A stretch of DNA of 64,000 nucleotides from Methanoculleus frigidifontis (GTDB taxonomy: Archaea > Halobacteriota > Methanomicrobia > Methanomicrobiales > Methanoculleaceae). Positions 26,639-41,576 of the stretch are shown here, one piece after another; position 1 is the first letter of the stretch; every line of letters begins with the position of its first letter. The DNA is taken from contig NZ_VCYH01000007.1 of assembly GCF_030464345.1 (NCBI RefSeq), positions 1 through 64,000 of the forward strand, in the 5' to 3' direction. The position numbers and the translations under genes were made by a program. A model generated the notes under the pieces. It worked only from the letters and a program-made list of their open reading frames with translations. It was not told the DNA's origin and did no database searches.

Positions 26639-26712
26639 TACTACATCCTCTCTACGGGATTATATATAACCTCCAGCGTTTTATCCTGCATTGCAGATGC
26701 AGGGCGCGCGCG

Positions 26713-27315
26713 TTACTGCTGCTCCATGCACTTTTTGCAGAGGGTTCTGCTCGTGAAGAGCTGGGCGAGTTTTGCCTGCGACTTCGCCACCGGTGCTCCA
26801 CATACTTCACAGACGGCCTCGGCTTCTTCTGCAGGTGGTTTGCTCTCCGGGGCGGTAGGTTCTTTCGCCGGTTCGGGCGCCGGAGCCGCTTCTTTCTTCT
26901 GTTCCGGCGGTTTTGGGTGCACCGGCGGGTGGGGCTGCTTCGGGGCAGGCGGGATCGCCTCCTGGATCACCCCGGTCGGGCACTCTTCCGGTGTCTGCGG
27001 GGCGCTCTTCTCACCTTCTGCCGCAGCCTCTGCTACGATCGGTTTCTGCTCCTGCTTCGGAGCCGGCGGCGGGGCAGCCTCCCCCATCTTCGAGATGTCG
27101 ATCCCGGTCGCGAGGACGCGGCGCCGGTATGCGTCGATGCGATCTGCGGTTGCCGCATCGCCGCGCCCGAGGCGTGCGAGCATCCCGTCGAGGAAGGCGA
27201 TCAGGTCGTCGGCATCCTGCTGGCTTTCCACTTTCCCCTCTACCTCGAGGCGGAGGTTTTCGTAATTTTCGAGGTTGATGGTTATGCCGATGGTGACTTC
27301 CTTCTTATCTGACAT
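26713..27315 (-). CDS. Zinc-ribbon protein with Pro/Ala/Glu linker, hypothetical
   Basis: A 200-residue protein with three parts: a conserved N-terminal module (about 1-75, VTIGITINLENYENLRLEVE, RIDAYRRRVL), a low-complexity linker rich in Pro, Ala, Glu and Lys (about 80-165), and a C-terminal zinc ribbon with CEVCGAPV and CKKCMEQQ. The N-terminal part resembles proteins annotated only as conserved in methanogens. ATG 27,315 is preferred; the longer frame is composition noise. It sits directly upstream of orc1 on the same strand with a 74-bp gap containing a TATA-like TTATATATAA, so the two are probably transcribed separately. Confidence 0.65.
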   Translation of the reverse strand: MSDKKEVTIGITINLENYENLRLEVEGKVESQQDADDLIAFLDGMLARLGRGDAATADRIDAYRRRVLATGIDISKMGEAAPPPAPKQEQKPIVAEAAAEGEKSAPQTPEECPTGVIQEAIPPAPKQPHPPVHPKPPEQKKEAAPAPEPAKEPTAPESKPPAEEAEAVCEVCGAPVAKSQAKLAQLFTSRTLCKKCMEQQ

Positions 27316-27432
27316 ATTTTCCCATAAATATTGTATTCCCTTATATACAATTCCTCCGCACGGCTCTGGTTCTGTGTCCGAACCGCTCTCCGGGTGCATC
27401 CACGGCCGTGATGGCCGGGCCTTGAGTGCACG

Positions 27433-28644
27433 TCAATACCGGCGTCTGAGATATGCCAGCAGCAGAACAAACCCCGTGAGAATTGCGGCTGCTGTATACC
27501 ATGCGTATCCGGGTGGGAGATGTGTGGTCGGTGCCGGGGTGACAGGCGCGGGAGGTTGCGCCAGGGTGGCCGTCGGTGCCGCGTTCATCTCCTGTTCCAG
27601 GGTCATCAGGCCATACGTCCCGGCGGCGTCGATCATGCCTGCTATAGTGTTGCCGTCGATTCTGCTCTGTGTCATCCGCCATGCGTCATCCTCGTACCGG
27701 GCGATGAAGAGATTGTACTGCGAGAGATTCTCGAGTACCGTGCCGGGCAGCTCGATGGTCAGCGTAGCCGCGGGGGAGAAGCCCGTCTCCGGCGGGATGA
27801 TGGTGTAGCCGGTGCCGATCGCAACCCAGTCTTCGGGAGCGTTCGTGATCTCGGTCTCGACAATCGCGAGATTCTCGTCCGTCACTCCGGTGAGAGAGAC
27901 CCTGCCGTCCGGTGAGGTGATGGTCAAATGCTTCCCCCCTTCCTGCCCGCTGCTCTCCGAGGAGATCCCGGGTGATTGCCACGATGAATTGTCTGCAGTA
28001 TTCCCGGATGACCGGCTTGTTGGCTGCGCACCGTCTGGTGCGGTTTCGTTGACGACGGCGACACGCGATCGCATCTGCTCGACCCCGTCGACCAGAACAG
28101 TGACCGTGACCTCTCCTGCCCCGATACCTCCGATAATAAACGAGATCCGGCCGTCGTCTGCGCCCTGCTTGGTGCCGGCGAGCTGCAGCTTGGCTGTCAC
28201 CGCTTCGGCAGTATCCGCCGCCTCTCCCTCGAGTTTCAGGTGCTCGTAGGTGCCTTCCGGAATATCCAGCGCCTCTTCAGCAGAAAAGCGCCCATCCGGG
28301 TCGGCATCGCCGGCGATGCTGACTGATGTGGTTCCCATACTGGCAGCTAGGCCTGTCCAGGCGGTATTTTCAGTGCTTGCAGAAATTGTTCCGGAATTGA
28401 GAGATATTGGCAGAACAAGGCTGTTCGCTTCAAACGAAAAGGCCTCTCCCGGTTCAACCTCGAATCTGCTGCCAATCTGGAGCGTGAAGACTGCGTTGTC
28501 CGGCAGATCGGAAAACTCGATGGCGATGGTATCGCCCGCAGCAGCCTGCGGCGGCGGTGGTGTGATGGAGAGCGCCGTACCGGGAGAGGCGCACCCCAAG
28601 GTGGCAATGAGGGCGATAAGCGCCAGAGAAATGAGTTGTCGCAT
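27433..28644 (-). CDS. Secreted surface protein with C-terminal membrane anchor
   Basis: A 403-residue protein: N-terminal signal (LISLALIALIATLGCASPG), a beta-rich domain opening with AGDTIAIEFSDLPDNAVFTL and holding NTAWTGLAASMG, a region resembling a dockerin or EF loop (AGDADPDGRFSAEEALDI), a Ser/Gly linker, a second beta domain (VSLTGVTDENLAIVETEITN), a Pro/Thr stalk and a final membrane helix (AAAILTGFVLLLAYLRRRY). It faces outward. The first domain is loosely like that of the gene at 29,081. Function unknown, possibly S-layer associated. Confidence 0.65.
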   Translation of the reverse strand: MRQLISLALIALIATLGCASPGTALSITPPPPQAAAGDTIAIEFSDLPDNAVFTLQIGSRFEVEPGEAFSFEANSLVLPISLNSGTISASTENTAWTGLAASMGTTSVSIAGDADPDGRFSAEEALDIPEGTYEHLKLEGEAADTAEAVTAKLQLAGTKQGADDGRISFIIGGIGAGEVTVTVLVDGVEQMRSRVAVVNETAPDGAQPTSRSSGNTADNSSWQSPGISSESSGQEGGKHLTITSPDGRVSLTGVTDENLAIVETEITNAPEDWVAIGTGYTIIPPETGFSPAATLTIELPGTVLENLSQYNLFIARYEDDAWRMTQSRIDGNTIAGMIDAAGTYGLMTLEQEMNAAPTATLAQPPAPVTPAPTTHLPPGYAWYTAAAILTGFVLLLAYLRRRY

Positions 28645-29010
28645 GCAGCGTCAATATGGTTTTGCTTATATAATCCTTTATGTATACAAATGCGATACCT
28701 GGTGCGCGTACGTGCTTGGCGTTACTGCGAGAAGATGATTGCGGTGAGTCCCTCACCTGGTTGGCATGGGGCACGAACGCCGGGTCATCTTCGTATTGTC
28801 GTCTGCTGCCTGTTGACAGCCCCGGAAGGTGCAGTATCTCCCGGCGCTGCGGCCGATGGTCTGAGATGAGCATTCTCTTTTCAGGGAATGAACACTTCAG
28901 CGCCCCCAAGGATGAGGGCAAAATTCATAATGTTCTCTTGTCATTCTCCTTGGAAAAGCGAAGATTAGATATACGGGCGAGTGGGCAGAGTTTGTATTCT
29001 GGCTAATAAA

Positions 29011-29035
29011 AATTTATATAAAAATCTTTATATAG
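29011..29035 (+). promoter_or_regulatory. AT-rich promoter of the surface protein gene
   Basis: Two TATA-like words (TTATATAAAA and CTTTATATAG) lie in tandem 46-70 bp before the ATG at 29,081. The 28,645-29,080 gap carries no other supported feature. Confidence 0.45.
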
Positions 29036-29080
29036 TTCTTACTTTATTGAGGTGCGTCCGTATCAATGGAGGTACGTACA

Positions 29081-29716
29081 ATGAGATGGATAGTTTATGC
29101 CTTTGGTTTCGCCCTTGTGGCTGCGACACTGCTTGTTGCGGGTGCAGGGGCGTGCCAGGCAACGGATGCCACTTGCACCATCAATCCCGGCGACACCATT
29201 TATGTGGAGGATCTGCCGGAGATCGAAGAGGGCATGCCGTTTAGGATGGAGATTGAGAATGCAGTCGCAGTATGCGAAAATGGCCGTTTTGAGATATCTC
29301 TGGAAAACTTCACGACGCCGTCCCCCATGGAGGATATGACCATTCAGCTGGAGGCGGACGAAGCTTCGACAATCGGCCTTCAGGTCACGAAGGATGGTAT
29401 GGTACGGGACCTCACCAGGGAAGGAAATGAGATCGAGATTACTTCGTTTGACTGCCCGGGAGGAGAGACCGATTCCATGACATTCTATGGAACCTGCTGC
29501 CAGTCCGATTCCGAGGTGGTGATTGACCTGATAATGGAGGGCACTGTCGGGTCGCTCAGCGGAACGAGCCCTGATGAGTTTTCGTTTGAGATCTATGGGA
29601 TTACTGACGGGCTCACCGATGTTTCTGTGGAGCTGGGCGATACCGCATGGACCGGGGAGGTCACGGTAACATCCGACGCGACAGGAGACGGTGAATGCCG
29701 GCTGACCCTCGCGTAA
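29081..29716 (+). CDS. Secreted cysteine-containing surface protein, hypothetical
   Basis: A 211-residue protein with a signal peptide (AFGFALVAATLLVAGAGAC) and a beta-rich domain that opens with NPGDTIYVEDLPEIEEGMPF and later has ELGDTAWTGEVTV. Six or more cysteines after the signal (CQATDATC, AVC, DCPG, TCC, GEC) suggest disulfides. There is no C-terminal anchor, so it is released or held by contact. The start at 29,081 is supported by TGGAGGT just before it; ATG 29,066 overlaps that site. It shares the GDTI opening and DTAWTG motif with the secreted protein at 27,433-28,644, so the two may be paralogous. Confidence 0.65.
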   Translation: MRWIVYAFGFALVAATLLVAGAGACQATDATCTINPGDTIYVEDLPEIEEGMPFRMEIENAVAVCENGRFEISLENFTTPSPMEDMTIQLEADEASTIGLQVTKDGMVRDLTREGNEIEITSFDCPGGETDSMTFYGTCCQSDSEVVIDLIMEGTVGSLSGTSPDEFSFEIYGITDGLTDVSVELGDTAWTGEVTVTSDATGDGECRLTLA

Positions 29717-30166
29717 CCGTGGAGGGTTTCCGGCTGTGATGAGCGTGATCATCTACTAACTCAATAAAGGTATCTGGGGGGGTGGCAAGACAATAAAGGG
29801 GCTAACAGAATGTGGTATCTATTCAGGATTCAGTAAAAACCATCATATACAGGGCAGATGCGGATACTATCGGATCTGAAGTCAAAAAACGGCTTTACCT
29901 CCATCAAGCATGACCCCCGGTGCAGAACGCCCTCAACCAATTGTTTCAATAATTGCTTCACTTTAAAATTTATTGCAGATCGATTCTCTTCGCGATTGGA
30001 TTATATACTGCCTGTTTTTCTGCTGCTATCCGATCGTAACAATACGTCGACCATGGCGGGTCATGCCGGAGGCGCTCACAGTCTTCAGCAGTGCTGCTGG
30101 TGTCCGGCAGAGCGCTGCCCATCCCTGGCGATGTTGTTTCCTTCTTCGACCAGCGTGAGCAGCCGG
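29717..30166. other. Gene-free gap between convergent genes
   Basis: No coding frame is supported. AT-rich words occur near 29,960-30,010 but no gene follows on the plus strand. It probably holds the 3' ends of the flanking transcripts. Confidence 0.4.
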
Positions 30167-31009
30167 CTACCCCTTCTCCTGCTGCTCTTCCTCCATGTCG
30201 GCAGCACTATTGCTTGTTTCCATCTTATCCTGTGCCTTTTCATGATATAGGATCAGCCGCATGGACTGACGTTTCGGATCGATCTGCGTCTGCGTAATGG
30301 TGCAGGCTCTGCCCGATCCTTTCGCGAGCATGCAGGCGATGAGGCTGCAGACCGGGCAGCCGATCATGGTGCAACATTTCGGGGACGCACTCCTGACGGC
30401 AATACACCCGGGGATGAGCCGGAATCCCGAGAGGGTGATGCTCACGGTATCTCCCGTTCGATCGATCTCCACCTGTTCTGCGATCTCCAGGGTGTCCTCG
30501 CAGACCTCCCTGATTGCGGTGAAGAGACCGTCGTCATTGGACGGCAGGGCAAGGGCGTTCTTCTCTTCCAGCCACCGGAGCAGCGGTTCGGCAGTCGGGG
30601 TGATCCGAACCCCGTCTGCCTCTGTGCCGACGATAAAGGAACTGTCGTCTGCCGGGAGGGGGACCGCGCCGGCAGCCGCCGGAATGACCTGGGTGACGCA
30701 GTGCCTGCCTTCGTCGGGGGGGAGGTACCGGGCATCCTCGCGAAGGCCGAGGTCGGCGCAGATCGTGGCAATAGTGATAGTGCCCTGGGTGGGCAGGAGG
30801 GAGAAGAGATGTGGGTCGAGCGGCTCTCCCTTTGTGAGGGTGAGGACGAAGACGGCTGCGATGAAGCTGACGGCACCGGTGAGTATCAGGGTGGCGCTCG
30901 TCATATCTCCGCGGCCGGTGATCAGTGCAAGTCCAATGCTTCCTGCCGATGCGGCGAACAGGATGAGGGAAGCGATATAGGGATTATTATACTGCAATCG
31001 TTCTGCCAT
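30167..31009 (-). CDS. Membrane protein, last gene of the MoxR/DUF58 operon
   Basis: A 280-residue protein with two N-terminal helices (ASLILFAASAGSIGLALITG and LILTGAVSFIAAVFVLTL, about 12-65) and a long cytoplasmic part. In that part a cysteine cluster (KCCTMIGCPVCSLIACMLAK) could bind a metal or be a third membrane-associated segment. The C-terminus is Glu/Gln-rich and charged. The family is not recognised. The start overlaps the stop of the gene before (TAATG) with a GGAGGG site, so it is translated from the same mRNA. Confidence 0.65.
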   Translation of the reverse strand: MAERLQYNNPYIASLILFAASAGSIGLALITGRGDMTSATLILTGAVSFIAAVFVLTLTKGEPLDPHLFSLLPTQGTITIATICADLGLREDARYLPPDEGRHCVTQVIPAAAGAVPLPADDSSFIVGTEADGVRITPTAEPLLRWLEEKNALALPSNDDGLFTAIREVCEDTLEIAEQVEIDRTGDTVSITLSGFRLIPGCIAVRSASPKCCTMIGCPVCSLIACMLAKGSGRACTITQTQIDPKRQSMRLILYHEKAQDKMETSNSAADMEEEQQEKG

Positions 31010-31467
31010 TATAGCCCTCCTGCCAATCGTTTCTGCTGTCGGTATTCGACGATAGCGACAACGAGGACGACTCCTCCGAAGACGGCACCCATGACCGGAA
31101 GCGTTGCGAGGGGATTTGTGCCTGCCTGCAGGATCGCGACGAACCCGATGCTCGCAACGGCAAAGGCGGCGAAGAGGCCGATGCTCTGCCGCCCTGCAAG
31201 GAGGTGCAGTTCTCTGAGCAGCAATCCGAGGAGCAGCAGCTGCAGGGCGAGGGGGAATCCCTCCGTCCCTGTCGACAGGGCAACAACCTCGCCGATCCCG
31301 AGCAGCACGACGGGCCGGCCAGCCCGGTCTCCTGTGAGAAGATATGCAGCCAGAAATGCCGCGAGCAGACCTGCTGTTATCGCGCCTTGGACCGTCATTA
31401 CCAGCCCTGTGGCGGCGAGGGCCACAAACCCGAGAGCGAGGAGATGTGCTCCCGCATCACCCCGCAT
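31009..31467 (-). CDS. Small polytopic membrane protein of the MoxR/DUF58 operon
   Basis: A 152-residue protein made almost wholly of hydrophobic helices (about five: LLALGFVALAATGLVMTVQG, AALLA..., FPLALQLLLLGLLL, GLFAAFAVASIGFVAIL, VMGAVFGGVVLVVAIVEY). The family is unknown. ATG 31,467 is chosen because it overlaps the DUF58 stop (TAATG) and follows AGGAGGC; a longer open frame to 31,617 runs inside the DUF58 gene and should be ignored. Confidence 0.65.
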   Translation of the reverse strand: MRGDAGAHLLALGFVALAATGLVMTVQGAITAGLLAAFLAAYLLTGDRAGRPVVLLGIGEVVALSTGTEGFPLALQLLLLGLLLRELHLLAGRQSIGLFAAFAVASIGFVAILQAGTNPLATLPVMGAVFGGVVLVVAIVEYRQQKRLAGGL

Positions 31468-32765
31468 TACGGTGCCTCCTTCCGGGGTCTGTGTCCGCGT
31501 GGAGTGTGCCGGTATCGACGCATCCGGCTCTCTGGTGTCCAGAGGGAGAGATGCCTCCCCTGCAGAGCCGCTTCTCGTGCGACGCAATCGATATGGCTTG
31601 TATCCCCGTTCCGGCATGTGTAGAGGTAGACGTTGTCTGACCCCGCCTCACCGAGCGCACGCCGGATCTGTGCCTCAAAGGGAGTCCGGGCGATCCCTTC
31701 CGGAAACGTACGGTAGAGTCTGTGCATGGCCTGCCGGTACGTGCTGGATTCTGCCTGCGGGTTCTGCTGCAGCCGTTCAAGTCGCCTGGCGGCTGCCCGC
31801 AGGGATGAGCGGTTCTGCATGCGGTAGAGATGGGTGTGGCGTGCGACCGGGTGCAGGACGGCAGGGAGCGTCGTCGCCTGATGCAGGACTTCGGGAGGAG
31901 TGAAGGAGCGTATGACGTTCGCACCGGAGATGAGCGTCAGCCAGCACCCCCCCGCGCTGCGGACTGCTCCCTCCACCGCACCTCCCACCGCCGCCGAAAA
32001 AGCCCCAAAGGCGGCTGAACCTTCCGATACCTCCAGGTCCGGGAGGTCCGCGATGATACACGGCATGCTGCCTCTCTGTCCGCTCATCTCCCGTGCAAAG
32101 AGGCGATCGTGCTTTGCGGCCATCTTCCAGTCGATGTCGCGGGGATCATCCCCTGCGCGGTAGGGGCGGAAAGAGCGGACGGTCTGGCCTTTCATGACCC
32201 GGAGATAGTCACTATCTTTCCGCCCCCCTTCCCTGCTGCCCCCCCCTTCGATCGCTGTGGCTGTTTGCGGGGGGATGACCTGGACATGCGGCTCCCTGCA
32301 GTCATCCCTGGTACACCGGATCTCCTGGCGGTAGAAGGGATCGGTGAGGGTGACCCAAAGTCCCCCGAACCGCGTTTCACCTGTGGCCATGAACCTGACA
32401 GGGTACCCGGCCGTCCAGCCGCCTGCGGGCGAGGGGGCGTACGTGGGTTCATCGCCGGAGGCGGCAAGGGCGGGGAGCAGATCGCGTATCGTGACCTTCA
32501 TCTGATCCGGCGACCGTGCAGTGATCCGCGATTCGACCGCAATAGCGCCGCCCTGCCGGACAACCTGCCGGTCGGTCTCCCGCGTGACGGTGATGCCGGC
32601 CAGGAATCTGCGGCATCCTACGGTAAAGGTGAGTGCCCGGTACGCGAGGAAGAGCCCGATCGTCGCCGCTGCTATCATGGCCGGCAGATCGCTTAGGAAA
32701 AGGGCGAACGCTCCGAGGAAAAGGGCTACTATGGCAAACCCCTGGGCATTCTGTGTCGGCTGCAC
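31467..32765 (-). CDS. DUF58 domain protein
   Basis: A 432-residue protein with two N-terminal membrane helices (FAIVALFLGAFALFLSDLPA and MIAAATIGLFLAYRALTF), a beta domain, the diagnostic DUF58 motif (VRSFRPYRAGDDPRDIDWKM followed by AAKHDRLFARE) at about residues 208-235, and a C-terminal VWA-like region. DUF58 proteins are regularly encoded next to MoxR ATPases and are thought to help assemble or remodel protein complexes, often at the membrane. It starts with GTG three bases after the MoxR stop. The DxSxS metal-site of a canonical VWA domain is not clearly visible. Confidence 0.85.
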   Translation of the reverse strand: MQPTQNAQGFAIVALFLGAFALFLSDLPAMIAAATIGLFLAYRALTFTVGCRRFLAGITVTRETDRQVVRQGGAIAVESRITARSPDQMKVTIRDLLPALAASGDEPTYAPSPAGGWTAGYPVRFMATGETRFGGLWVTLTDPFYRQEIRCTRDDCREPHVQVIPPQTATAIEGGGSREGGRKDSDYLRVMKGQTVRSFRPYRAGDDPRDIDWKMAAKHDRLFAREMSGQRGSMPCIIADLPDLEVSEGSAAFGAFSAAVGGAVEGAVRSAGGCWLTLISGANVIRSFTPPEVLHQATTLPAVLHPVARHTHLYRMQNRSSLRAAARRLERLQQNPQAESSTYRQAMHRLYRTFPEGIARTPFEAQIRRALGEAGSDNVYLYTCRNGDTSHIDCVAREAALQGRHLSLWTPESRMRRYRHTPRGHRPRKEAP

Positions 32766-32768
32766 GGT

Positions 32769-33743
32769 TTATGGCACCTCGACCGTGCTGACGATGTCGT
32801 CGACCACCTCTCCGGCTGTTACCTGCTCGATCTCTGCCTCGGGTTCCAGGATGATCCTGTGCTGGAGCACCGGCAGGATGAGCGCCTTCACGTCGTCGGG
32901 GATGATATATGTCCGGTTCCTGAACGCGGCACGCACCTTTGCCCCGGTCAGCAGGGCGAGGGATCCGCGGGAGCTGGCTCCCAGCCGGACATTTTCATGC
33001 TCCCGCGAGGCGATGACCAGGTCTCTGATGTACTGCAGGACCGCTTCATCCGCATAGACTTCTCTGACGGCGGCATGCATCCGGAGGATCTCTGCGGTCG
33101 TAATGACAGGGGTGAGCTGGTCGCGATAGGCTGTCCAGTCGAGTTCGCCTGCCTGGCTCCGCCGGAGGATCTTAAGTTCGCTGTCGCCGTCCAGATGCCT
33201 GACAATCGTGCTGAGCATGAACCGGTCTTTCTGCGCCTCGACGAGCGGGAAGGTGCCCTCAAGCTCGTAGGGGTTCTGTGTGGCGATGGTGAAGAAGGGT
33301 TCGGCGAGCGGGTAGGTTACGCCGTCGATCGTCGTCTGGCCCTCGCCCATCGCTTCGAGGAATGCACTCTGCGTCCTGGGTGTGAGGCGGTTGATCTCGT
33401 CGATCACAAGAAAGTTCGAGAATATCGGTCCTTGGATCAGTGAGAATGTCTTTGTCTTCTGGTCATAGATCCGCAGACCGATGATGTCGGCGGGCTGTAC
33501 GTCCACCGCGCATTGCACGCGCTTGAAATCGAAGCTGATGAGCCCGGCGAGGATCTTGCTGATAGTGGTCTTCGCCGTCCCGGGCACGCCCTCGATGAGG
33601 ACGTTCCCGCCTGCAAAGATGCCGATCAGGATCGGTTCAAGATCTGCCGGATCGCCGACGATATACCTGTGGGTGTTCTCCTGGATCTGCCGGTACGCGG
33701 ATGCAATCGATGCGATCCGCTCTTCAAGATTCTGTTCATGCAT
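32769..33743 (-). CDS. MoxR-family AAA+ ATPase
   Basis: A 324-residue chaperone-type ATPase: Walker A EGVPGTAKTT (residues 51-60), pore-region and Walker B FLVIDEINRLTPRTQSAFLE, sensor I ATQNPYELEGTFPLVEAQKD, and a C-terminal lid with VRLGASSRGSLALLTGAKVR. MoxR proteins use ATP to mature or insert metal or partners into client complexes together with VWA/DUF58 proteins. The start overlaps the end of the DUF4350-like gene by 8 bp. Likely client: the Ig-repeat membrane protein encoded upstream (inference). Confidence 0.92.
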   Translation of the reverse strand: MHEQNLEERIASIASAYRQIQENTHRYIVGDPADLEPILIGIFAGGNVLIEGVPGTAKTTISKILAGLISFDFKRVQCAVDVQPADIIGLRIYDQKTKTFSLIQGPIFSNFLVIDEINRLTPRTQSAFLEAMGEGQTTIDGVTYPLAEPFFTIATQNPYELEGTFPLVEAQKDRFMLSTIVRHLDGDSELKILRRSQAGELDWTAYRDQLTPVITTAEILRMHAAVREVYADEAVLQYIRDLVIASREHENVRLGASSRGSLALLTGAKVRAAFRNRTYIIPDDVKALILPVLQHRIILEPEAEIEQVTAGEVVDDIVSTVEVP

Positions 33744-34629
33744 TGTCGCTCTCCTCCGTTTTCCGTCTGCCGAAGATGATGATCGCCGGCAGCACCACCA
33801 GCCCTGCGATCAGCACACGCCACGGCGATGATCGGACGGCACTGATGCCGTCGATTACGTCCCCCCCCGAGGCTGTCCGGCTCCGTGTCTGGTCGAGGAG
33901 GACTGACGGGTACGCTCCCGTCACCTGCCGGAGGAACCGGGCGTTGTCAACCTCTCCGTCGATGGCGAGCATTGCGTTGATGAAGATGCTCGGATCGGCA
34001 AGCACGATTATCTCGCCGCTGCCTGCGTTTTCACGGGAGCAGAGGGTGTAACCGCCCTGTGGTTCGCCCGGGTCGATCCTGCCGTTGCCGTTTTGGTCGA
34101 TCCAGCTCAGCGGGGACGTCCGGATGAGCGCTGTCCCGCCGGTGACCGTCCCGGGGTGGTTGAACTGGAGCGCGGTGCAGTTCGTGAGGAGGGGATGGTC
34201 GCTGCACCGCCTGCCGGTGACCGCTCCGGGATCGGTGTAGGATCGTTCGGCGCCGGAGACGTTTCCGGGCACAAGTCTGATACTGCTTCCAAGCTCCCCG
34301 AGCAGCTGGTTGCCGCTGCCGTCATCGTCTGCAAGGAGAATGCTGTTCCCCTGCTCGAGGAACGCCCGGTACCGCTCAATCTCTGCCGGGGTGTAGGATC
34401 CCGCCGGGGCAATGATGACGAGCAGCGCATTCCGGTGTCCTTCAAGGCTGGCGGTCTCATGCACCTCGACGGCACCGCTCTTGATGAAGCGCTCGACGCA
34501 CCCGGACGTCCCGTTCCACTGAATATTGTATCTGCTGTACTCCTCCGTCGTCGTGGTGAGGTGGGCCGAGACTGCGACGACCGCCAGCATGAGAACGCCT
34601 GCCACTATCCACATACGCCGGTTACTCAT
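33736..34629 (-). CDS. DUF4350-like membrane protein
   Basis: A 297-residue protein with one N-terminal helix (MWIVAGVLMLAVVAVSAHL), an extracytoplasmic domain typical of DUF4350 (LLVIIAPAGSYTPAEIERYR, FLEQGNSILLADDDGSGNQL) and a C-terminal helix (VLIAGLVVLPAIIIFGRR). It contains an EF-hand-like calcium loop, DQNGNGRIDPGEPQGG. ATG 34,629 lies within the stop of the upstream gene (ATGAGTAA); three GTG codons just before it allow a slightly longer form. DUF4350 genes neighbour MoxR/DUF58 genes in many bacteria and archaea. Confidence 0.78.
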   Translation of the reverse strand: MSNRRMWIVAGVLMLAVVAVSAHLTTTTEEYSRYNIQWNGTSGCVERFIKSGAVEVHETASLEGHRNALLVIIAPAGSYTPAEIERYRAFLEQGNSILLADDDGSGNQLLGELGSSIRLVPGNVSGAERSYTDPGAVTGRRCSDHPLLTNCTALQFNHPGTVTGGTALIRTSPLSWIDQNGNGRIDPGEPQGGYTLCSRENAGSGEIIVLADPSIFINAMLAIDGEVDNARFLRQVTGAYPSVLLDQTRSRTASGGDVIDGISAVRSSPWRVLIAGLVVLPAIIIFGRRKTEESDNA

Positions 34630-36370
34630 CACCACCACCCGCCGCGCAGGCCAGTATCATGATGAAGAGTTCCCCGAGCCGTTGCCGCTCCCCGGCGTCC
34701 GGAACCCTTCCGGCGTAGCAGACCCGCTCGTGCAGTTCGACGAACGCAGCCAGATCGGGGGCAAACTCCCTGGCATGGTAGTTCTTCAGAACTTCCCGCG
34801 GGGTCGCTGTCCGGAGGGCCGGAGCCTGCGTCACCGGCCCGAGCCGCTCGAGGAGGGCATGGTAGAGGAGCGCCACGCCCTCCCGCGGGTCGGCCGCCGA
34901 GAGCAGGGCATCTGCAACCGCCTGCAGGTCTTCGTCCGCGGGCATGCCCGTATCCTGCCTGCTCTCCGTCTCCGGCATCGCGCTCGTCTGGTGTCGCCAG
35001 GTGGTCTGCAGCGATTTTTCCGGATGCGGGACACTGTTCCTCGAGCGCCGGATATACCAGTTTCCACCGACGATCGACGTGATGCCGGCGAATGCGACTG
35101 CCAGAAGGGCTGCCGGCGATCCGAAACCAGGGATGAGGTTGATAGTGACAGGCTGGCTGCTCGACCCGTTCAGCGGGAAGCCCTCGCCCGAAAAGACTGC
35201 GGTGATGGTGTGGGTTCCGGAGGTGAGATTGATAGCATGCCGGTACCATCCGTCCGCTCCGGTTACGGTCTCTGTTCCGGTCCGTCCGTCGATGATAAAC
35301 GAGACGGGTGCATCCGCCACCGGTTCCCCATCTGCCGTGAGAATTCTTCCTGTGCAGGAGGCACCCGCTGTCTCGATGCCGGAAGACGGCGTGACTGCGA
35401 GCGTGACGCTGGTGTCCTCTGGAAGAACCGCAAACTGTGCAACCCCGGAGAGTGCTGGCCCCACCCCTGCGTAGACAAAGTGCGTGCCGCTTGCGATCTC
35501 TCTGACGGGGAGGAGGTAGCGGTAGGCACCGGACGAATCGGCCAGTGCGGTGCCGGCTGGCCGGCTGTCGAGGATGATCTCCACGGAGGCGTTTCCTTCT
35601 CCGGAAGTGTTCGACACCGTCCCTGCAATCGCGAGAGTGTCGTTGTAGGTAACCCGGCCGGGAACGACACCGATCGAGATTGTCGCTCCTGGAAGGGTGC
35701 CTGCGGCAGCGGCTAAACTCTGCTGCCCTGCTGCGACTGCGGCCGGGAGCGCCTCCAGAGCCCCCAGGCTCTGCCGGTATTCCGTGGTGTTCAGGCCGTA
35801 TGCCTCTCCGATGGCGGCGATCCGATCCTGTCTGCTTGTGACGGAGCTCACCCCTTCGGTGATCGTGCGGTTGAGCGCCTCCCCCTCATAGACGATGGAG
35901 CGTGTCCGGTTGGCATCCAGGCCGTGTTCGCGGATCTCGATCGAGCGTACCTCGTCAAAGCGTCCGGAATCATTGACAATCTCGTACAGGTCTCTGAGAC
36001 ACTGCTCGTTCTCCCGGGCGAATGTATCCGCATCGCTGCCTTCCAGGTCAAGGTCGACCACGACGTTCTGGAGGTGTTCGGCATGTTCGAGCGCTGCCCT
36101 GAGGTCCTCCTCTGCGCCGTCAAGGTCATGCGCTTTGATTCTGATGGTGATCTCTGCGGTATCCTGCAGGAGCCCGTCCATGAGCCCGAGAACCATGCCT
36201 GCGTCCGCCGGATCTGTGGCGGTCTCATACTGCAGATCCCGGTGGTAGAGTGTTTTGCTCTGGTTCTCCGCGCTGAAGAAGACCGGGGTGCTTGCAGCGT
36301 AGGTGAGCATCAGGATTGATGCGAGTGCGAGAACCGCAAGGACGAGGCTTGAAACGGAAGATCGCATCAT
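34622..36370 (-). CDS. Large Ig-repeat membrane protein with DUF4129-like C-terminus
   Basis: A 582-residue protein: signal/anchor helix (LVLAVLALASILMLTYAAST), a helical domain rich in Glu/Asp/Leu (about 50-220) that may be a coiled coil, two or more Ig-like domains (GVVPGRVTYNDTLAIAGTVS; VTLAVTPSSGIETAGASCTG; ADAPVSFIIDGRTGTETVTG), a second membrane helix (AALLAVAFAGITSIVGGNWY) and a cytoplasmic tail of about 130 residues that looks like the DUF4129 helical module (LLYHALLERLGPVTQAPALR, ELHERVCYAGRVPDAGERQR). It is the main candidate for the surface or client protein handled by the operon's MoxR ATPase. Confidence 0.7.
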   Translation of the reverse strand: MMRSSVSSLVLAVLALASILMLTYAASTPVFFSAENQSKTLYHRDLQYETATDPADAGMVLGLMDGLLQDTAEITIRIKAHDLDGAEEDLRAALEHAEHLQNVVVDLDLEGSDADTFARENEQCLRDLYEIVNDSGRFDEVRSIEIREHGLDANRTRSIVYEGEALNRTITEGVSSVTSRQDRIAAIGEAYGLNTTEYRQSLGALEALPAAVAAGQQSLAAAAGTLPGATISIGVVPGRVTYNDTLAIAGTVSNTSGEGNASVEIILDSRPAGTALADSSGAYRYLLPVREIASGTHFVYAGVGPALSGVAQFAVLPEDTSVTLAVTPSSGIETAGASCTGRILTADGEPVADAPVSFIIDGRTGTETVTGADGWYRHAINLTSGTHTITAVFSGEGFPLNGSSSQPVTINLIPGFGSPAALLAVAFAGITSIVGGNWYIRRSRNSVPHPEKSLQTTWRHQTSAMPETESRQDTGMPADEDLQAVADALLSAADPREGVALLYHALLERLGPVTQAPALRTATPREVLKNYHAREFAPDLAAFVELHERVCYAGRVPDAGERQRLGELFIMILACAAGGGDE

Positions 36371-36633
36371 TCTCCCAGGATCTCCAGCACCTTCAGGGCG
36401 ACGATGTACCCGAAGAGGATGACGCCGACGGCGACGGCGTACCTGAGATATGACTGATACTCAGGCCGCGAGAAAGCCGGGGTGGCGAGTTCAACGATCA
36501 CCAGGGTTCCGATGAGCCAGAGGACAAAGAAGATCTCACCACTCAGGTACTGGTTCAGGATCATAGCTCCGACTACCAGAAAGAGCCAGACGGTGAGCAC
36601 GAGGAGAGCGGCGTACTTTCTGCCAAGCCCCAT
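36367..36633 (-). CDS. Small membrane protein, first gene of the MoxR/DUF58 operon
   Basis: An 88-residue protein with three predicted helices (YAALLVLTVWLFLVVGAMIL, IFFVLWLIGTLVIVELATP, AVAVGVILFGYIVALKVLEI). No family recognised. ATG 36,633 is chosen because a strong TATA element lies 22 bp upstream, leaving almost no leader; the frame's longer extension has non-coding composition. Its stop overlaps the start of the Ig-repeat gene (ATGATG). Confidence 0.7.
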   Translation of the reverse strand: MGLGRKYAALLVLTVWLFLVVGAMILNQYLSGEIFFVLWLIGTLVIVELATPAFSRPEYQSYLRYAVAVGVILFGYIVALKVLEILGE

Positions 36634-36654
36634 TCGCGGGATTTTATTTTTAAT

Positions 36655-36666
36655 TTTATATATAAA
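36655..36666 (-). promoter_or_regulatory. TATA box of the MoxR/DUF58 operon
   Basis: TTTATATATAAA, palindromic, 22 bp upstream of the first ATG. All seven following genes overlap or nearly touch, so this is probably the promoter for 6.5 kb. Confidence 0.55.
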
Positions 36667-36787
36667 TGTATCGGGGTGGGCTGGCATGCCGGGAAACTGA
36701 AGACTAATGGTGATCCCCGTCAAAGATGTGTACCATGTCCGGGTCCGACCCGGCAGGCGCATGCGGCAGATGATGACAGTTACCCCC

Positions 36788-36840
36788 ACTGACATCCGGA
36801 TGATGATGCAGGGGCCTGATGCCGCACTGTTTGTGCTCGC
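36788..36840 (+). repeat. Dispersed repeat, copy A
   Basis: About 50 bp, beginning ACTGACATCCGGATGATG and continuing through TATGCCGCAC-like sequence, recur at 52,592-52,643 with few differences. Both copies lie at the outer edges of the glycan region. The rest of the 36,796-37,272 gap shows no gene; an AT-rich patch around 37,130-37,175 may hold a promoter. Confidence 0.5.
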
Positions 36841-37272
36841 CGTTGATGCTGGCCGGATCCGTTTTGCTCTTCTCCCTCGCTGCAGAGCGCCGGGCAGCAG
36901 CCGTCTCTTTCCAACGGCACCCGTCGATGGTCGGGCGCGCTTCCAGAGTATGGAATGAACGGAACATGCCGGAAGATGCGTGCGTCGAAGGCCGCGAATT
37001 TGCCTGCTGCGTGTGCCGTGCAGGCCTGTTTCTCTTGTGCGGGGCAGGAGGGAGCCGGGTTACGCCTTCCCGGGACGATCCTCCGGGGAGTATTACAATA
37101 ACGTTAGGCTTTGGGTCGGCCGGGGGGCATTTAAATTTTACTAGAAATATATTTATAGTAATATAATTATTGAGGGTCATCTCAGCCAGTATCCCCTTGG
37201 GCATCAATAGGAAAAACCGGAGCTCACCACACTGCCACGCGGATATGAGCGGACGTAGGGGGAGGAGGGTCC

Positions 37273-37680
37273 ATGCAATACGACAGTTCGTGTGCCTCTG
37301 CCACAACTGAAGCGGAGGGTGGTGAGTTTCGTGTCCGGGCAGCAGCACTGCCCGCTTCCCTGCCGGTCTACCGGTATGCGGGGAAGACTGCCGATCTGCC
37401 CCGGGATATCGGCACTTCTTCCGGTGAGGGTTTGTACCGGGATCATAGGATCGCTGTCGTCGTTCCCGCCTACAATGAGGAACCCCTCGTTGGAGAGACG
37501 CTCCGGACGATCCCGGAGTATGTGTCCCGTTTCTATGTCATCACCGACTGTTCAACGGATGGCACCGGCGACCGGATTGAGGTGCCTGTCCGAAGGGATC
37601 CCCGGATCGTTCACTTCCGCCATGACCGGAACAGCGGGGTCGGCGCCCGGATTTTGTTTACACTCCGGAGGCACGTATGA
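37273..37680 (+). pseudogene. Glycosyltransferase family 2, N-terminal fragment
   Basis: Residues about 58-130 are the start of a GT2 nucleotide-sugar domain: RIAVVVPAYNEEPLVGETLR, VITDCSTDGTGDRI and FRHDRNSGVGA. The match ends abruptly and the frame stops after ARILFTLRRHV, so the acceptor domain and membrane anchor (another 250 residues) are missing. The metal-binding DxD has not been reached. The stop overlaps the start of the next, complete GT2 gene (ATGA), so a deletion between two tandem GT2 genes is likely. Confidence 0.65.
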
Positions 37681-38774
37681 ACGCAGCCAGGATCGCCGCT
37701 CAGGAAGCCGATTCATTGGTGATTGTCACACCGACGATCGCATCCTCACGATCTTCTCACAAACCCGGGAGGGTCGTTTCCGAAAGAAAGCGATCCTGTC
37801 GAACCCTCGTTGCCATGCCCGCCTATAACGAGGAGAAGTACATTGCAAAGACAATCGTCGGCGCCCGAACGTATGCCGACAGAGTTCTTGTCGTCGACGA
37901 TGGCTCCACGGACGACACCGATGCCATCGCCCGGGCTCTGGGCGCTCTTGTCGTCCGCCACGAGACCAACAGAGGCTATGGCGGTGCTCTCCAGACGATC
38001 TTTGCTGCGGCACGTGCGTCAGGCGCCGAAGAGCTCGTCGTCATTGATTCCGACGGCCAGCATAACGCGGAGGACATCGGAAAGCTTCTCGCCGAGCTCC
38101 GGAAGGGCAACGACGTCGTCATTGGCTCCCGATTCCTCGACGGCAACGACGGCGGGATCCCCGCCTACCGGAAGGTCGGGATGAAGGTGCTTGATAAGGC
38201 CACCACGATGGCCGGCACCAGGCTTGCGGTCTCCGATTCCCAGAGCGGTTTTCGGGCATACGGGAAGAGGGCAATTGATGCCATCCATCTCAGTGGCGAG
38301 GGTATGTCTGCCGGCTCTGAGATCCTGATCCAGATCAGCGATCACCATCTGCAGGTTGCCGAGGTGCCGGTCAGGGTGCGCTACGATATCGAGGATACCT
38401 CCTCGCAGCATCCCGTGTCGCATGGAGTCGGAGTGCTGATAAACATTGTGAAGCTCGTCAGCTGCCGGAGGCCGCTGTTCTTCTTTGGGATCCCGGGATT
38501 CCTTCTGTTTGCATTTGGGGTAGGGTTGGAGATCTATGCATTCTCAGAGCATTACAGGATTAACCAGTTCCATTATATTCTGTTCACCGGAGGGATGTCC
38601 GCACTCGTACTTGGCCTTCTGCTCATTACCGCTGGGATGATTCTCTTCGCTCTCATTGAAGTACTAAGAGGTCAGGACACTCAGATGGCGCGTACTCCGA
38701 CATCAATAACTGTGAAGGCTCCCCCGTCTTCAGTTCCAGCACCGCCAGAGGAGTCGGGAGATGAAATGCGATGA
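37677..38774 (+). CDS. Glycosyltransferase family 2, dolichyl-phosphate sugar synthase-like
   Basis: A 365-residue protein. From about residue 42 it is a GT2 enzyme: RTLVAMPAYNEEKYIAKTIV, VLVVDDGSTDDTD, the DxD in VVIDSDGQHNAEDIGKLLAE, and SRFLDGNDGGIPAYRKVGMK, followed by two C-terminal membrane helices (FFFGIPGFLLFAFGVGLEIY and ALVLGLLLITAGMILFALIE). Such proteins load a sugar onto dolichyl phosphate or initiate glycan synthesis. The first 41 residues have no counterpart in the family and probably come from the neighbouring truncated gene; the ancestral start may have been lost. Last GC-rich gene before the AT-rich island. Confidence 0.8.
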   Translation: MNAARIAAQEADSLVIVTPTIASSRSSHKPGRVVSERKRSCRTLVAMPAYNEEKYIAKTIVGARTYADRVLVVDDGSTDDTDAIARALGALVVRHETNRGYGGALQTIFAAARASGAEELVVIDSDGQHNAEDIGKLLAELRKGNDVVIGSRFLDGNDGGIPAYRKVGMKVLDKATTMAGTRLAVSDSQSGFRAYGKRAIDAIHLSGEGMSAGSEILIQISDHHLQVAEVPVRVRYDIEDTSSQHPVSHGVGVLINIVKLVSCRRPLFFFGIPGFLLFAFGVGLEIYAFSEHYRINQFHYILFTGGMSALVLGLLLITAGMILFALIEVLRGQDTQMARTPTSITVKAPPSSVPAPPEESGDEMR

Positions 38775-38971
38775 GCAAAAGGTACATGAATTTGAACGTG
38801 ATTGCAATTGTTCCTTGAGACAAGGATCAAGAGATTCTCAAAATCTCTTTGATAATATACCGTCCAGCATTGAATTAATGACGTTCTAATTTCACCTTCC
38901 CCTTAAGCTCACTAAAAAGTAAGACCAACAAGATGAACTTGCATCCGAAACGCCTAACGAGGAAGATAAAA

Positions 38972-40147
38972 ATGAATGAAACAGCAAATATATTTGTCAC
39001 AGATGCACAAATGCGGAGTTCCTTGGCAGTAATTCGTTCATTGGGAAAACGGGGATTTAAAGTTACTGCTGGTGAGGAAACCCGTTTTGCAACAGGTTTT
39101 TTTTCAAAGTACTGTAATAACCATGTGGTATATCCGCCTCCCCTCAAACAGAAAAAAGATTTTATTGAATATTTGATTGCAACACTACAAAAAAACACCT
39201 GTGACCTTCTTATCCCAGTAGCAAATCCTACCCTTGAACCAATTATTGAAAATGAGAAGGAACTATCTCAATATGTCAATATTGCCCTTCCACCACGCGA
39301 AACTTTCATGAAGGGCTACGATAAGCAAACCACTCTGAAAATCGCATTAGGAAATAGCATCCCATGTCCGAAAACACATTTTATTGAGCACTTGGATGAC
39401 ATATATAATATTGAGGATTTGCTGGAATACCCTCAAACAATAAAGCCAACAATAAGCTTTGGCAGCAGGGGGTTTGATACTTGCAATTCTTTTGACCAAC
39501 TGATTGAAAAAGCCGAAAGATCACTTTCTAATTACAATACAATATTACTTCAGGAATATATTCCTAATGGTGGCGAATTTGGGGTCTACACACTGTTTAA
39601 CTCCTGTTCCAGACCCTGTGCATTAACAGTTCAAAAGCGATTGAGATCATATCCTATCTCAGGCGGTCCAAGTACTCTTAGAGAAACGTTCCATACAGAA
39701 ACATCTGAAATTGCTGTAAATGCTGCCTTTAGGTTGTTGAATGCGATGAAATGGGTTGGAGTTGCGATGGTTGAATTTCGAATAGACTCAAGAGATGGCA
39801 TTCCAAAGTTAATGGAGGTGAATCCTCGTTTCTGGGGTTCACTGGCGCTATCTATTCAAGCAGGAGTAGATTTCCCTTATCTCTTATATAAACAATTCAT
39901 TGATGGGGATGTCAAACCTGTTCTAGATTACAAAGATGGGGTAAAATGCAGATGGCTGCTTCCAGGAGATATTTTGTGGTTTTGCAGCGCTCCAAATAAA
40001 CTACGTAATCTACCAAAGTTACTAGACTTCAGAATAAAAGATGATATCGTCTCATTCACAGATCCAATGCCTACATTTGGATTTTTTACAGCTGTTGCCA
40101 GGTACTTATTTGACCTAGATATGTGGAAGTTTATTTTTAGGAGATAA
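38972..40147 (+). CDS. ATP-grasp ligase of the carbamoyl-phosphate synthase-like class
   Basis: A 391-residue protein: an N-terminal pre-ATP-grasp part (ANIFVTDAQMRSSLAVIRSL), then the ATP-grasp core with PQTIKPTISFGSRGFDTC, LLQEYIPNGGEFGVYTLFNS and the metal-binding ending GIPKLMEVNPRFWGSLALSI. Such ligases join a carboxylate to an amine or hydroxyl; in polysaccharide clusters they are believed to decorate sugars with amino acids or similar groups. ATG 38,972 follows a GAGGAAGA site; the frame extends 13 codons upstream. First gene of the AT-rich island, three bases before the deacetylase. Confidence 0.82.
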   Translation: MNETANIFVTDAQMRSSLAVIRSLGKRGFKVTAGEETRFATGFFSKYCNNHVVYPPPLKQKKDFIEYLIATLQKNTCDLLIPVANPTLEPIIENEKELSQYVNIALPPRETFMKGYDKQTTLKIALGNSIPCPKTHFIEHLDDIYNIEDLLEYPQTIKPTISFGSRGFDTCNSFDQLIEKAERSLSNYNTILLQEYIPNGGEFGVYTLFNSCSRPCALTVQKRLRSYPISGGPSTLRETFHTETSEIAVNAAFRLLNAMKWVGVAMVEFRIDSRDGIPKLMEVNPRFWGSLALSIQAGVDFPYLLYKQFIDGDVKPVLDYKDGVKCRWLLPGDILWFCSAPNKLRNLPKLLDFRIKDDIVSFTDPMPTFGFFTAVARYLFDLDMWKFIFRR

Positions 40148-40150
40148 AAT

Positions 40151-40975
40151 ATGATAAATGGACTGAGTATTGACTTGGAGTACTGGTGGAGCATAGAACT
40201 TCTCAAAAATTGCATTCCAAAGAAAAAAGACGATTTAATCACTGAATCTGTAGATCCATTACTTAAGTTACTCGATGCATATGATGTGAGCGCTACCTTC
40301 TTTGTCTTGGGAATGGTTGCCGAAAAGTATCCGGAGCTTATTTATAATATTCATACACGAGGACATGAAATTGGTTGTCATGGGTATTCTCATAAGACGT
40401 TAGTTGATCTAGGTGAGATGGGTTTTGAAGAGGATCTCAAAAGAGCTATGATGTATTTAGGCAAATATCACCCTATAGGGTATAGAGCTCCATCATTCTC
40501 TTTGAATAATGATACTCTATGGGCCTTGGAAATTCTAAGAGATCAGGGCTTTCTGTATGATTCAAGTGTTTTCCCAATAAAGACATCATTATATGGCGTT
40601 CCTGAAGCTCCCGTCCACATCTACAGACCTTGTAAGACCAATATTGCTCTGCACGATCCCGAGGGTCCAATAATTGAGTTTCCGCTAACTGTACTTAATA
40701 TGGGTAAAAATATTCCAATTGCTGGAGGATTTTATATTCGTGCACTTCCAGAAATGTTTTTGAAATGGGGTATCCGTAGCGTAAATAAAGAGAAAAGACC
40801 CGCCATAATATATGTCCATCCTTGGGAAACATATCAAGAGACACCAAGAGTCCGGATGTTACCTCCTAGATATATTGTAACATACTATGGAATTGCTTCC
40901 GCTCTGAAAAAGCTAGAAGGGATATTGAAAGAGTTCAATTTTAAGCCAATGCGGGAGATTTTGCATGATCTATGA
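40151..40975 (+). CDS. Polysaccharide deacetylase (NodB-type, CE4)
   Basis: A 274-residue enzyme that should remove acetyl groups from N-acetyl sugars. The CE4 metal site is present: the Asp in GLSIDLEYWW and SATFFVLG, the HxxxH pair in GHEIGCHGYSHKTL (His-Gly-Tyr-Ser-His), and IGYRAPSFSLNN as motif 3. The C-terminal part has VHPWETYQETPRVR, typical of the group with DUF3473. AT-rich, and overlaps the PHP gene by 11 bp. Confidence 0.87.
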   Translation: MINGLSIDLEYWWSIELLKNCIPKKKDDLITESVDPLLKLLDAYDVSATFFVLGMVAEKYPELIYNIHTRGHEIGCHGYSHKTLVDLGEMGFEEDLKRAMMYLGKYHPIGYRAPSFSLNNDTLWALEILRDQGFLYDSSVFPIKTSLYGVPEAPVHIYRPCKTNIALHDPEGPIIEFPLTVLNMGKNIPIAGGFYIRALPEMFLKWGIRSVNKEKRPAIIYVHPWETYQETPRVRMLPPRYIVTYYGIASALKKLEGILKEFNFKPMREILHDL

Positions 40976-41576
40976 TTTACACATCTACTCAAAATATTTT
41001 CAAGACTCATTATTGTCGCCAGAAATCATCAAAACTGCGAAAAGAAAAAACATGGATGGCATTGCCATAACCGATCATAATGTTATAAAGGGCGTCTTTG
41101 CCACCCCCAAACTATACCGAAACAGAGACATTGAGGTAATTGTCGGGGCTGAGGTTAAGGTCGAGTATGATGACGTAACAGGGTTATTCTTAAATGAGGA
41201 GGGCAAAACACGAACGTCTGCAGAGGTGACCACTGAAAGTCATGATCCGGGGGAATACGCATCCTTGCTCATCCATCCTGCCGCTTTGTTTTCCCTAATA
41301 AGTCGATCAAGTGTGTGGATCTCATTGAATATTTTAATGCCCGAGAAACTGCAGAAAAAAAATCCGACAAGCCCATGCTTTTGCACAAACATTTCAAAAA
41401 TGATGATTGCTGGAGGTAACTCTTATTTATCGTTTGAAATTGGGCGGGGGAGAGCTTACATTACGGAATCGGGCATTGAAAGTGCATTAAAGGATGGTAT
41501 GACATCTGGTGATCAAGTAATGAGAAGGTGCTACAAAGTTAAATTAAGTCCTTTAAATCTCGGAGAGAACCTATGA
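40965..41576 (+). pseudogene. PHP-domain phosphoesterase with two compensating frameshifts
   Basis: The open frame encodes a PHP start (YDLHIYSKYFQDSLLSPEII, then GIAITDHNVIKGVF, VIVGAEVKVEYDDVTGLFLN) and end (MMIAGGNSYLSFEIGRGRAY), but the middle is out of frame. In another frame, 41,250-41,395 reads HPSCRFVFPNKSIK then VDLIEYFNARETAEKKSDKP, which is exactly the missing PHP core. So a frame change near 41,250 and a second near 41,395 restore the reading frame. The middle histidine and Asn residues of the metal site are thereby lost. It is probably inactive. The gene overlaps its neighbours (11 bp and ATGA), which shows an intact ancestor in the operon. Confidence 0.8.

What the first reader, a model, noticed from the sequence alone, without database searches (positions are those of the whole stretch)
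30167..36666. Seven-gene MoxR/DUF58/DUF4350 operon built around a large Ig-repeat membrane protein
Every junction overlaps or nearly touches, with one palindromic TATA box in front. The MoxR ATPase and DUF58 protein are known assembly partners in general; here the likely client is the 582-residue protein with coiled coil, Ig-like repeats and a DUF4129-like tail, with two or three small membrane proteins of no known family. This could be an assembly machine for a surface complex not yet described.
Basis: partly seen in the sequence, partly recalled or inferred. Interest (0 to 1): 0.55.

Follow-up and report, generated by a model that had tools for sequence, protein, structure and literature searches.

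The report
Seven-gene archaeal envelope-assembly operon
A methanogenic archaeon carries two copies of a seven-gene set that probably builds or secretes something at the cell surface; others had predicted the set in outline, but it splits into separable modules, one of them a pair of membrane proteins of no known family that also turns up alone among sugar-coat genes.

Summary
The operon is real: seven minus-strand genes (A-G), 36633-30167, overlapping or 3 nt apart, behind a palindromic TATA box. Of 113 related loci examined, 80 hold all seven. The idea is not new: Makarova et al. 2015 (PMC5898192) predicted a secretion system around DUF4350, MoxR, vWA, Ig-like and small membrane proteins; this is a variant of it. 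B looks like a fixed subunit with a docking DUF4129 tail rather than a client. A secreted protein, H (27433-28644), beside both operon copies of this genome, is a better client candidate. New here: G matches no Pfam family, has four invariant cysteines and a fold that resembles, at middling scores, V4R/TRAPP/H-NOX; A and G also form a stand-alone pair in 13 of 14 loci, among polysaccharide genes. Mechanism is inferred.

The parts
36655..36666 (-). palindromic TATA box TTTATATATAAA, the only one in the window
   Evidence: spacing read
36367..36633 (-). A: 88-aa membrane protein (three hydrophobic stretches by hydropathy), no Pfam family above cut-off; elsewhere paired with B alone or with G alone
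34622..36370 (-). B: N-terminal hydrophobic segment, helical ectodomain 54-222, two Ig-like domains about 228-414, TM about 419-443, DUF4129 tail (helices 482-576)
   Evidence: sidedness inferred
33736..34629 (-). C: DUF4350 protein with a hydrophobic segment at each end; domain predicted extracellular
   Evidence: topology after PMC5898192
32769..33743 (-). D: MoxR AAA+ ATPase, Walker A GVPGTAKT and Walker B VIDEINR present
31467..32765 (-). E: DUF58 protein with N-terminal hydrophobic region; first MIDAS serine replaced by proline (ADLPDLE)
31009..31467 (-). F: membrane protein with five hydrophobic stretches, least conserved of the seven between the two copies
30167..31009 (-). G: TM hairpin plus alpha/beta domain with invariant C202, S209, C213, C218, C221; no Pfam family; fold resembles V4R/TRAPP/H-NOX/BcsD at middling scores
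27433..28644 (-). H: secreted-looking protein with C-terminal hydrophobic segment and RRRY end; its family lies beside the operon in 35 of 68 loci; candidate client (inference)

Best explanation
The operon encodes a membrane-spanning AAA+ machine that assembles, exports or remodels a cell-surface component. Shown by sequence: MoxR (D), DUF58 (E), DUF4350 (C), a five-segment membrane protein (F), an Ig-repeat protein with DUF4129 tail (B) and the membrane proteins A and G are inherited as a set. Inferred: MoxR and DUF58 form the cytosolic motor; B is a fixed subunit that couples it, through the DUF4129 tail, to the outside through its helical and Ig-like ectodomain; C is its extracellular partner; A-G is a regulatory or docking module whose G domain binds a ligand or metal or acts as a scaffold; the substrate is a surface protein such as H, with DUF1616 as a partner at most loci. 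Whether the act is assembly, secretion or surface modification is not decided.
For: 80 of 113 loci hold all seven genes. B and DUF4350 go together in 57 of the 58 genomes with a DUF4350 match of 47 bits or more. The 9 displaced B genes of the C-D-E-F-G genomes are one clade (100/100) whose branching, for the shared genomes, equals that of the C-D-E-F-G MoxR clade (100/98), with some inner forks weak. Outside the order, 13 of 15 loci fetched around G hold C, D and E, 15 of 15 a B-profile match and 11 of 15 an A match, though reordered. The own genome has a second complete copy, L084. H: 2 of its 3 copies in the genome lie beside the two operons; H and DUF1616 stay with the core in 9 and 10 of 11 C-D-E-F-G loci although B has left. 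Makarova et al. proposed a secretion-system model on gene neighbourhood.
Against: No interaction, expression or phenotype was tested. G051 (96% complete) has the core and no B match, so B may be dispensable there or missed. H is seen at 35 and DUF1616 at 46 of 68 loci and the window copy lacks DUF1616 nearby, so neither is obligatory. Flanks of operon loci show few polysaccharide genes, so the surface product is not evidently a glycan. 43 of 100 genomes have no B match (some are incomplete), so the system is not essential to the order.
Confidence: 0.5

Rival explanations
1. B is the client: MoxR and DUF58 mature B and the other proteins help.
For: B is encoded with the machine in 80 of 113 loci. 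In the bifidobacterial PFNA operon the authors suggest that MoxR may fold the FN3-repeat surface protein encoded beside it (PMC8430577, passages).
Against: B's invariant residues are in the cytosolic tail; its copy number and tree follow the core even where the gene is displaced. Six loci (L123, L174-L177, L179) have a second protein between B and C that matches the B profile mainly through its tail and has another ectodomain (tail judged by eye), which fits a docking tail. A dedicated client would also be co-inherited, so this does not exclude it.
Confidence: 0.2
2. A secretion system in the strict sense: membrane subunits form a channel, C and B an outer assembly (the Makarova model).
For: Published neighbourhood analysis and model; most subunits are membrane or extracellular by prediction; the H family and a family of larger secreted-looking proteins lie next to the operon in 35 and 25 of 68 loci.
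Against: No subunit matched a channel family above its cut-off in Pfam or NCBIfam; H has its own hydrophobic N-terminus and could use the general Sec route (inference).
Confidence: 0.2
3. An envelope-sensing system: B and C sense the surface, G a ligand or metal, and MoxR and DUF58 relay the signal.
For: The G model matches sensor folds (DmpR, MopR, PoxR, H-NOX, Z 6.4-7.2) as well as TRAPP and BcsD; four invariant cysteines.
Against: None of the seven proteins matched a kinase or DNA-binding output family; unrelated rows such as histidine kinases reach Z 6.9-7.1 in the same list; sequence profiles do not support the V4R link.
Confidence: 0.1

Closest known systems
arCOG01314 (DUF4350) predicted secretion or membrane-remodelling system, Makarova, Galperin and Koonin 2015 (PMC5898192; section 3.2, legends, tables)
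   Same: DUF4350, MoxR, vWA-type protein, Ig-like membrane protein, small 2-3 TM and 5 TM proteins; DUF1616 nearby at 46 of 68 loci
   Different: A fixed seven-gene order, a G subunit with four invariant cysteines and a detachable A-G pair, none described in the sections read; no DUF1616 found beside the window copy. Whether A, F or G are among the listed arCOGs could not be tested
Mycobacterial DUF4350-MoxR-DUF58-SpoIIM-RDD genes (Rv3691-Rv3695; one table in PMC8191103, passage)
   Same: DUF4350, MoxR and DUF58 genes are neighbours by number and all lowered together in a double lysogen of M. chelonae
   Different: SpoIIM and RDD proteins listed there; A, B and G were not searched for in mycobacteria
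Bifidobacterial PFNA operon (PMC8430577, passages)
   Same: MoxR, DUF58 and a repeat-bearing surface protein in one operon
   Different: Kinase and transglutaminase genes there, none among the seven here; no DUF4350 among its listed genes
NorQ/NorD and related MoxR-VWA chaperones (PMC9976466, passages)
   Same: MoxR next to a vWA-type protein
   Different: NorD needs its MIDAS for the client; the vWA-type domain of E lacks the DxSxS motif

Membership tests
DUF4350 (arCOG01314) predicted system | DUF4350 protein with hydrophobic anchors at both ends | tested here: met
   E 1e-28
DUF4350 (arCOG01314) predicted system | MoxR AAA+ ATPase in the same operon | tested here: met
DUF4350 (arCOG01314) predicted system | vWA-type protein in the operon | tested here: met
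   DUF58 match; DUF58 as vWA-like is recalled, and the MIDAS is lost
DUF4350 (arCOG01314) predicted system | Ig-like membrane protein in the neighbourhood | tested here: met
DUF4350 (arCOG01314) predicted system | DUF1616/pfam07760 protein (arCOG02884) in the neighbourhood | tested here: inconclusive
   not found in the flanks of the window copy (26001-41000), present at the second copy L084 and in 46 of 68 loci
DUF4350 (arCOG01314) predicted system | membership of the arCOGs listed in the paper | not testable with these tools
   no arCOG library on hand
MoxR AAA+ family | AAA_3 domain, AAA_lid_2, Walker motifs | tested here: met
   Walker A pattern in 112 of 113 D proteins
MIDAS-type MoxR-VWA chaperone (NorQD-like) | DxSxS MIDAS motif in the partner | tested here: not met
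   window E reads DLPDL; the first serine is P in 78 of 83 operon and 11 of 11 C-D-E-F-G loci, whereas 13 of 13 DUF58 proteins beside the other MoxR keep DxSxS
V4R domain family (for G) | match to the Pfam V4R profile | tested here: not met
   62 G proteins scanned, V4R not among the families listed at E 0.1; hhalign against 20 archaeal V4R proteins scores 14.3, no better than five unrelated controls
V4R/TRAPP/H-NOX fold (for G) | same fold over the domain | tested here: inconclusive
   VIA Z 8.7 TRAPP, 8.3 BcsD, 7.1 H-NOX, 6.7 MopR, with unrelated rows up to 7.1; Foldseek best E 0.019
Bifidobacterial PFNA operon | kinase and transglutaminase genes in the operon | tested here: not met
   no such match among the seven proteins

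The most novel reading that the evidence does not exclude
A and G form a portable membrane switch, with G a four-cysteine V4R/TRAPP-fold domain facing the cytoplasm, that plugs into two different surface machines: the MoxR/DUF58/DUF4350 machine and exopolysaccharide production. It would couple a ligand, metal or redox signal to building the archaeal envelope, and would be a membrane-anchored prokaryotic relative by fold of TRAPP subunits at work in surface traffic.
Probability: 0.25. Interest if true: 0.75.

Novelty: new variant of a known kind. Interest (0 to 1): 0.5.

Why it matters
The passages seen here give archaeal MoxR/DUF58/DUF4350 systems a predicted role but no tested function or client. 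The data split the system into modules (A-B, A-G, core C-D-E-F), name four invariant cysteines of G to mutate and name H as a client to follow. That makes a 2015 model testable in a methanogen or in a tractable haloarchaeon with a related set.

Tried and rejected
B as an accidental neighbour: rejected by co-occurrence and by the displaced A-B pairs. MIDAS loss as a special mark of this operon: thought so, withdrawn, where 15 of 15 E proteins of further loci (14 outside the order, and L215) and 24 of the 25 bacterial ones printed (of 45 aligned) also lack DxSxS; it is common in this kind of DUF58. G as a V4R family member by sequence: not supported. Solved structures by sequence with the G profile: two chains at E 1.7 only. 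Bacterial loci L035-L083 as sources of A or G: 0 of 49 match either profile, 4 match DUF4350. A conserved palindromic TATA box: no. Glycosyl transferase family 2 does not separate A-G flanks from operon flanks (6 of 125 against 5 of 131). Papers with both DUF4129 and MoxR: none in the library. Papers with arCOG01314 or three partner arCOGs: the 2015 paper and one 2019 review. MoxR/GvpN with vWA proteins near thaumarchaeal type IV pili is another published link (PMC4858521, passages); no pilus genes were sought here. A substrate-binding-like gene (named by eye) touches C in L126, L135 and L137; not followed.
Full report
OBSERVATION. Seven minus-strand genes run from 36633 to 30167. A/B, B/C, C/D, E/F and F/G overlap by 4, 8, 8, 1 and 1 nt and D/E are 3 nt apart. 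The only TTTATATATAAA of the window lies at 36655-36666, its centre about 27 nt before the first codon of A; chance expectation 0.00. Pfam names B (Ig-like families and DUF4129), C (DUF4350), D (AAA_3 with AAA_lid_2) and E (DUF58); A, F and G match nothing above a cut-off, and NCBIfam lists nothing above its cut-offs for the seven.

ORGANISM. Several same-order contigs have the length of named Methanomicrobiales contigs (for example G089:C18 and the Methanolinea contig of L004, 20593 bases), so the order is taken to be Methanomicrobiales.

SECOND COPY. The same genome has a complete second set on contig C3 (L084); identities to the window copy are A 58%, B 31%, C 42%, D 58%, E 33%, F 27%, G 50%. 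In the MoxR tree the second copy is sister to the one other genome of the genus searched (G080, 100/99). The window copy groups in the B tree with one copy each of G034 and G069, genomes that have two (98/95, long branches flagged); in the MoxR tree its place is open. It is a divergent second system, by duplication or transfer; which one is not decided.

CONSERVATION. 80 of 113 hold all seven families (some named and unnamed loci are the same contig). 11 hold C-D-E-F-G only (one cut, C-D-E-F). 15 hold D, D-E or D-E plus a B-profile match; 13 of these are another MoxR/DUF58 family and 2 show D alone (L034, L180). The other 7 are partial: contig ends, L031 with split reading frames, and the haloarchaeal L032. 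The 4-nt A/B overlap recurs in many loci.

Directly upstream of C lies a helicase gene in L128, L131, L144 and L147, and a substrate-binding-like gene (named by eye) touching C in L126, L135 and L137; the rest show other frames or a contig end. The B profile finds B elsewhere in 9 of these 11 genomes; in 8 of the 9 fetched loci A lies directly before B, and the ninth begins at a contig edge inside B. Exceptions: G051 (96% complete, no B) and G067 (81% complete, B only in its full operon). The 9 displaced B proteins are one clade (100/100), and for the shared genomes its branching equals that of their MoxR proteins, some inner forks being weak (85/62 in the B tree). A tenth displaced, broken B (G010) is a fragment and falls with the genus g2 instead. 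Over all 100 genomes B is in 57 and DUF4350 over its cut-off in 60; each of the 57 has DUF4350, and the three others are G051 and two genomes with weak matches, 38.9 and 43.0 bits. B behaves as a subunit.

MODULES. G matches occur in 67 of 100 genomes, against 57 for B. Of 17 stand-alone G matches below 240 bits, 14 were fetched; in 13 of the 14 an A match lies directly in front of G on the same strand. A FemAB/GNAT-like cluster occurs in 13 of the 14 loci L204-L217 (this set includes the cut operon L215). Among 125 longest-first ORFs around 13 A-G loci, Pfam tallies 22 Acetyltransf_6, 11 FemAB, 16 Glycos_transf_1, 10 Polysacc_synt_3, 6 Glycos_transf_2 and 5 PGA_cap, and NCBIfam 21 pepcterm_femAB. 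Among 131 ORFs around 18 operon loci the scan gives 4 Glycos_transf_1 and 5 Glycos_transf_2; Acetyltransf_6, FemAB and Polysacc_synt_3 are not among the 25 families shown, so at most 2 each. Fisher p is 0.004 for Glycos_transf_1; the loci are related, so this is descriptive. The third G of the own genome is such a pair (L204). Outside the order 24 of the genomes searched have a G match; of 15 loci fetched from 14 of them, 13 have C, D and E, 15 a B-profile match and 11 an A match, and in L237, L241 and L243 G and A sit side by side on the strand opposite to B-C-D-E.

G PROTEIN. 62 G proteins share invariant L87, C202, S209, C213, C218 and C221, window numbering. AlphaFold gives mean pLDDT 89.7: a TM hairpin and an alpha/beta domain. 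VIA-align lists TRAPP subunits (Z 8.7, 126 residues, 3.5 A), BcsD (8.3), H-NOX (up to 7.1) and the phenol-sensor domains of DmpR, MopR and PoxR (6.5-7.2); unrelated rows such as histidine kinases reach 7.1, and Foldseek has no match at E 0.001 (best 0.019). The resemblance is to one fold group but middling. Sequence does not support V4R membership, although the weak profile alignment sets GCPVCSL against the V4R GRPACAF stretch. That the domain faces the cytoplasm is inferred from charges.

B PROTEIN. AlphaFold mean pLDDT 85.9: hydrophobic N-terminus, long helices 54-222, two Ig-like domains (top row covers 228-414, Z 11.4), TM, disordered linker, DUF4129. The helical part was not searched alone. 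Of 62 members 37 match DUF4129, 33 CarboxypepD_reg and 28 Big_3_5 at E 0.001.

E PROTEIN. DxSxS is kept in 13 of 13 DUF58 proteins beside the other MoxR, but its first serine is proline in 78 of 83 operon and 11 of 11 C-D-E-F-G proteins (serine in 5 of the 83). NorD needs its MIDAS for activity on the client but not for binding NorQ (PMC9976466, passages). However 15 of 15 E proteins of further loci and 24 of the 25 printed bacterial ones also lack DxSxS, so the loss is general in this branch. It suggests that the client is not bound through a MIDAS.

NEIGHBOURS. 35 have an H-family gene, a secreted-looking protein with a stalk and C-terminal hydrophobic, basic end; 27 have both. C-D-E-F-G loci keep DUF1616 in 10 and H in 9 of 11. 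The own genome has three H matches: one by each operon and one on contig C5. The window copy has H at 27433-28644 but no DUF1616 in its flanks. To the right of the operon lies a polysaccharide stretch: glycosyl transferase 37677-38774, ATP-grasp 38933-40147, deacetylase with DUF3473 40151-40975, glycosyl transferase 41573-42748.

KNOWN WORK. Makarova, Galperin and Koonin 2015 (section 3.2, legends and tables) predicted a secretion system around arCOG01314/DUF4350 with MoxR, vWA, Ig-like, DUF1616-type, 2-3 TM and 5 TM proteins; the window operon meets most features tested. Searches for later work on these arCOGs gave that paper and one line of a 2019 review. The V4R to TRAPP link is published (PMC2253512, start of abstract and one passage). 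I saw no paper on A or G in the listings, which searched family names, not these proteins.

VERDICT. Real, conserved, and a variant of a published prediction. The client reading for B is weakened though not excluded; B is better read as a docking subunit and H as a client candidate. The new and open part is the A-G pair.

Noticed in passing
window 37273-42748: Right of the operon lies a polysaccharide stretch: two glycosyl transferases, an ATP-grasp protein and a DUF3473 polysaccharide deacetylase.
   Followed up: partly
L204:7614-9184: A third A-G pair in the same genome (G000:C1 about 460 kb), with no MoxR or DUF58 match in the stretch fetched.
   Followed up: partly
L126, L135, L137 upstream of C: A substrate-binding-like gene (named by eye, no Pfam row seen) touches the DUF4350 gene where A-B is missing.
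   Followed up: no
L123, L174-L177, L179: A second protein matching the B profile, with another ectodomain, sits between B and C.
   Followed up: no
window 29066-29716: 216-aa secreted-looking protein between H and the operon on the opposite strand, no Pfam match; its start resembles H by eye only.
   Followed up: no
L233:5652-7236: A displaced A-B pair in a genome (G010) that also has a full operon; the B match is in two pieces with a TAG inside one, so it looks like a decaying copy.
   Followed up: no
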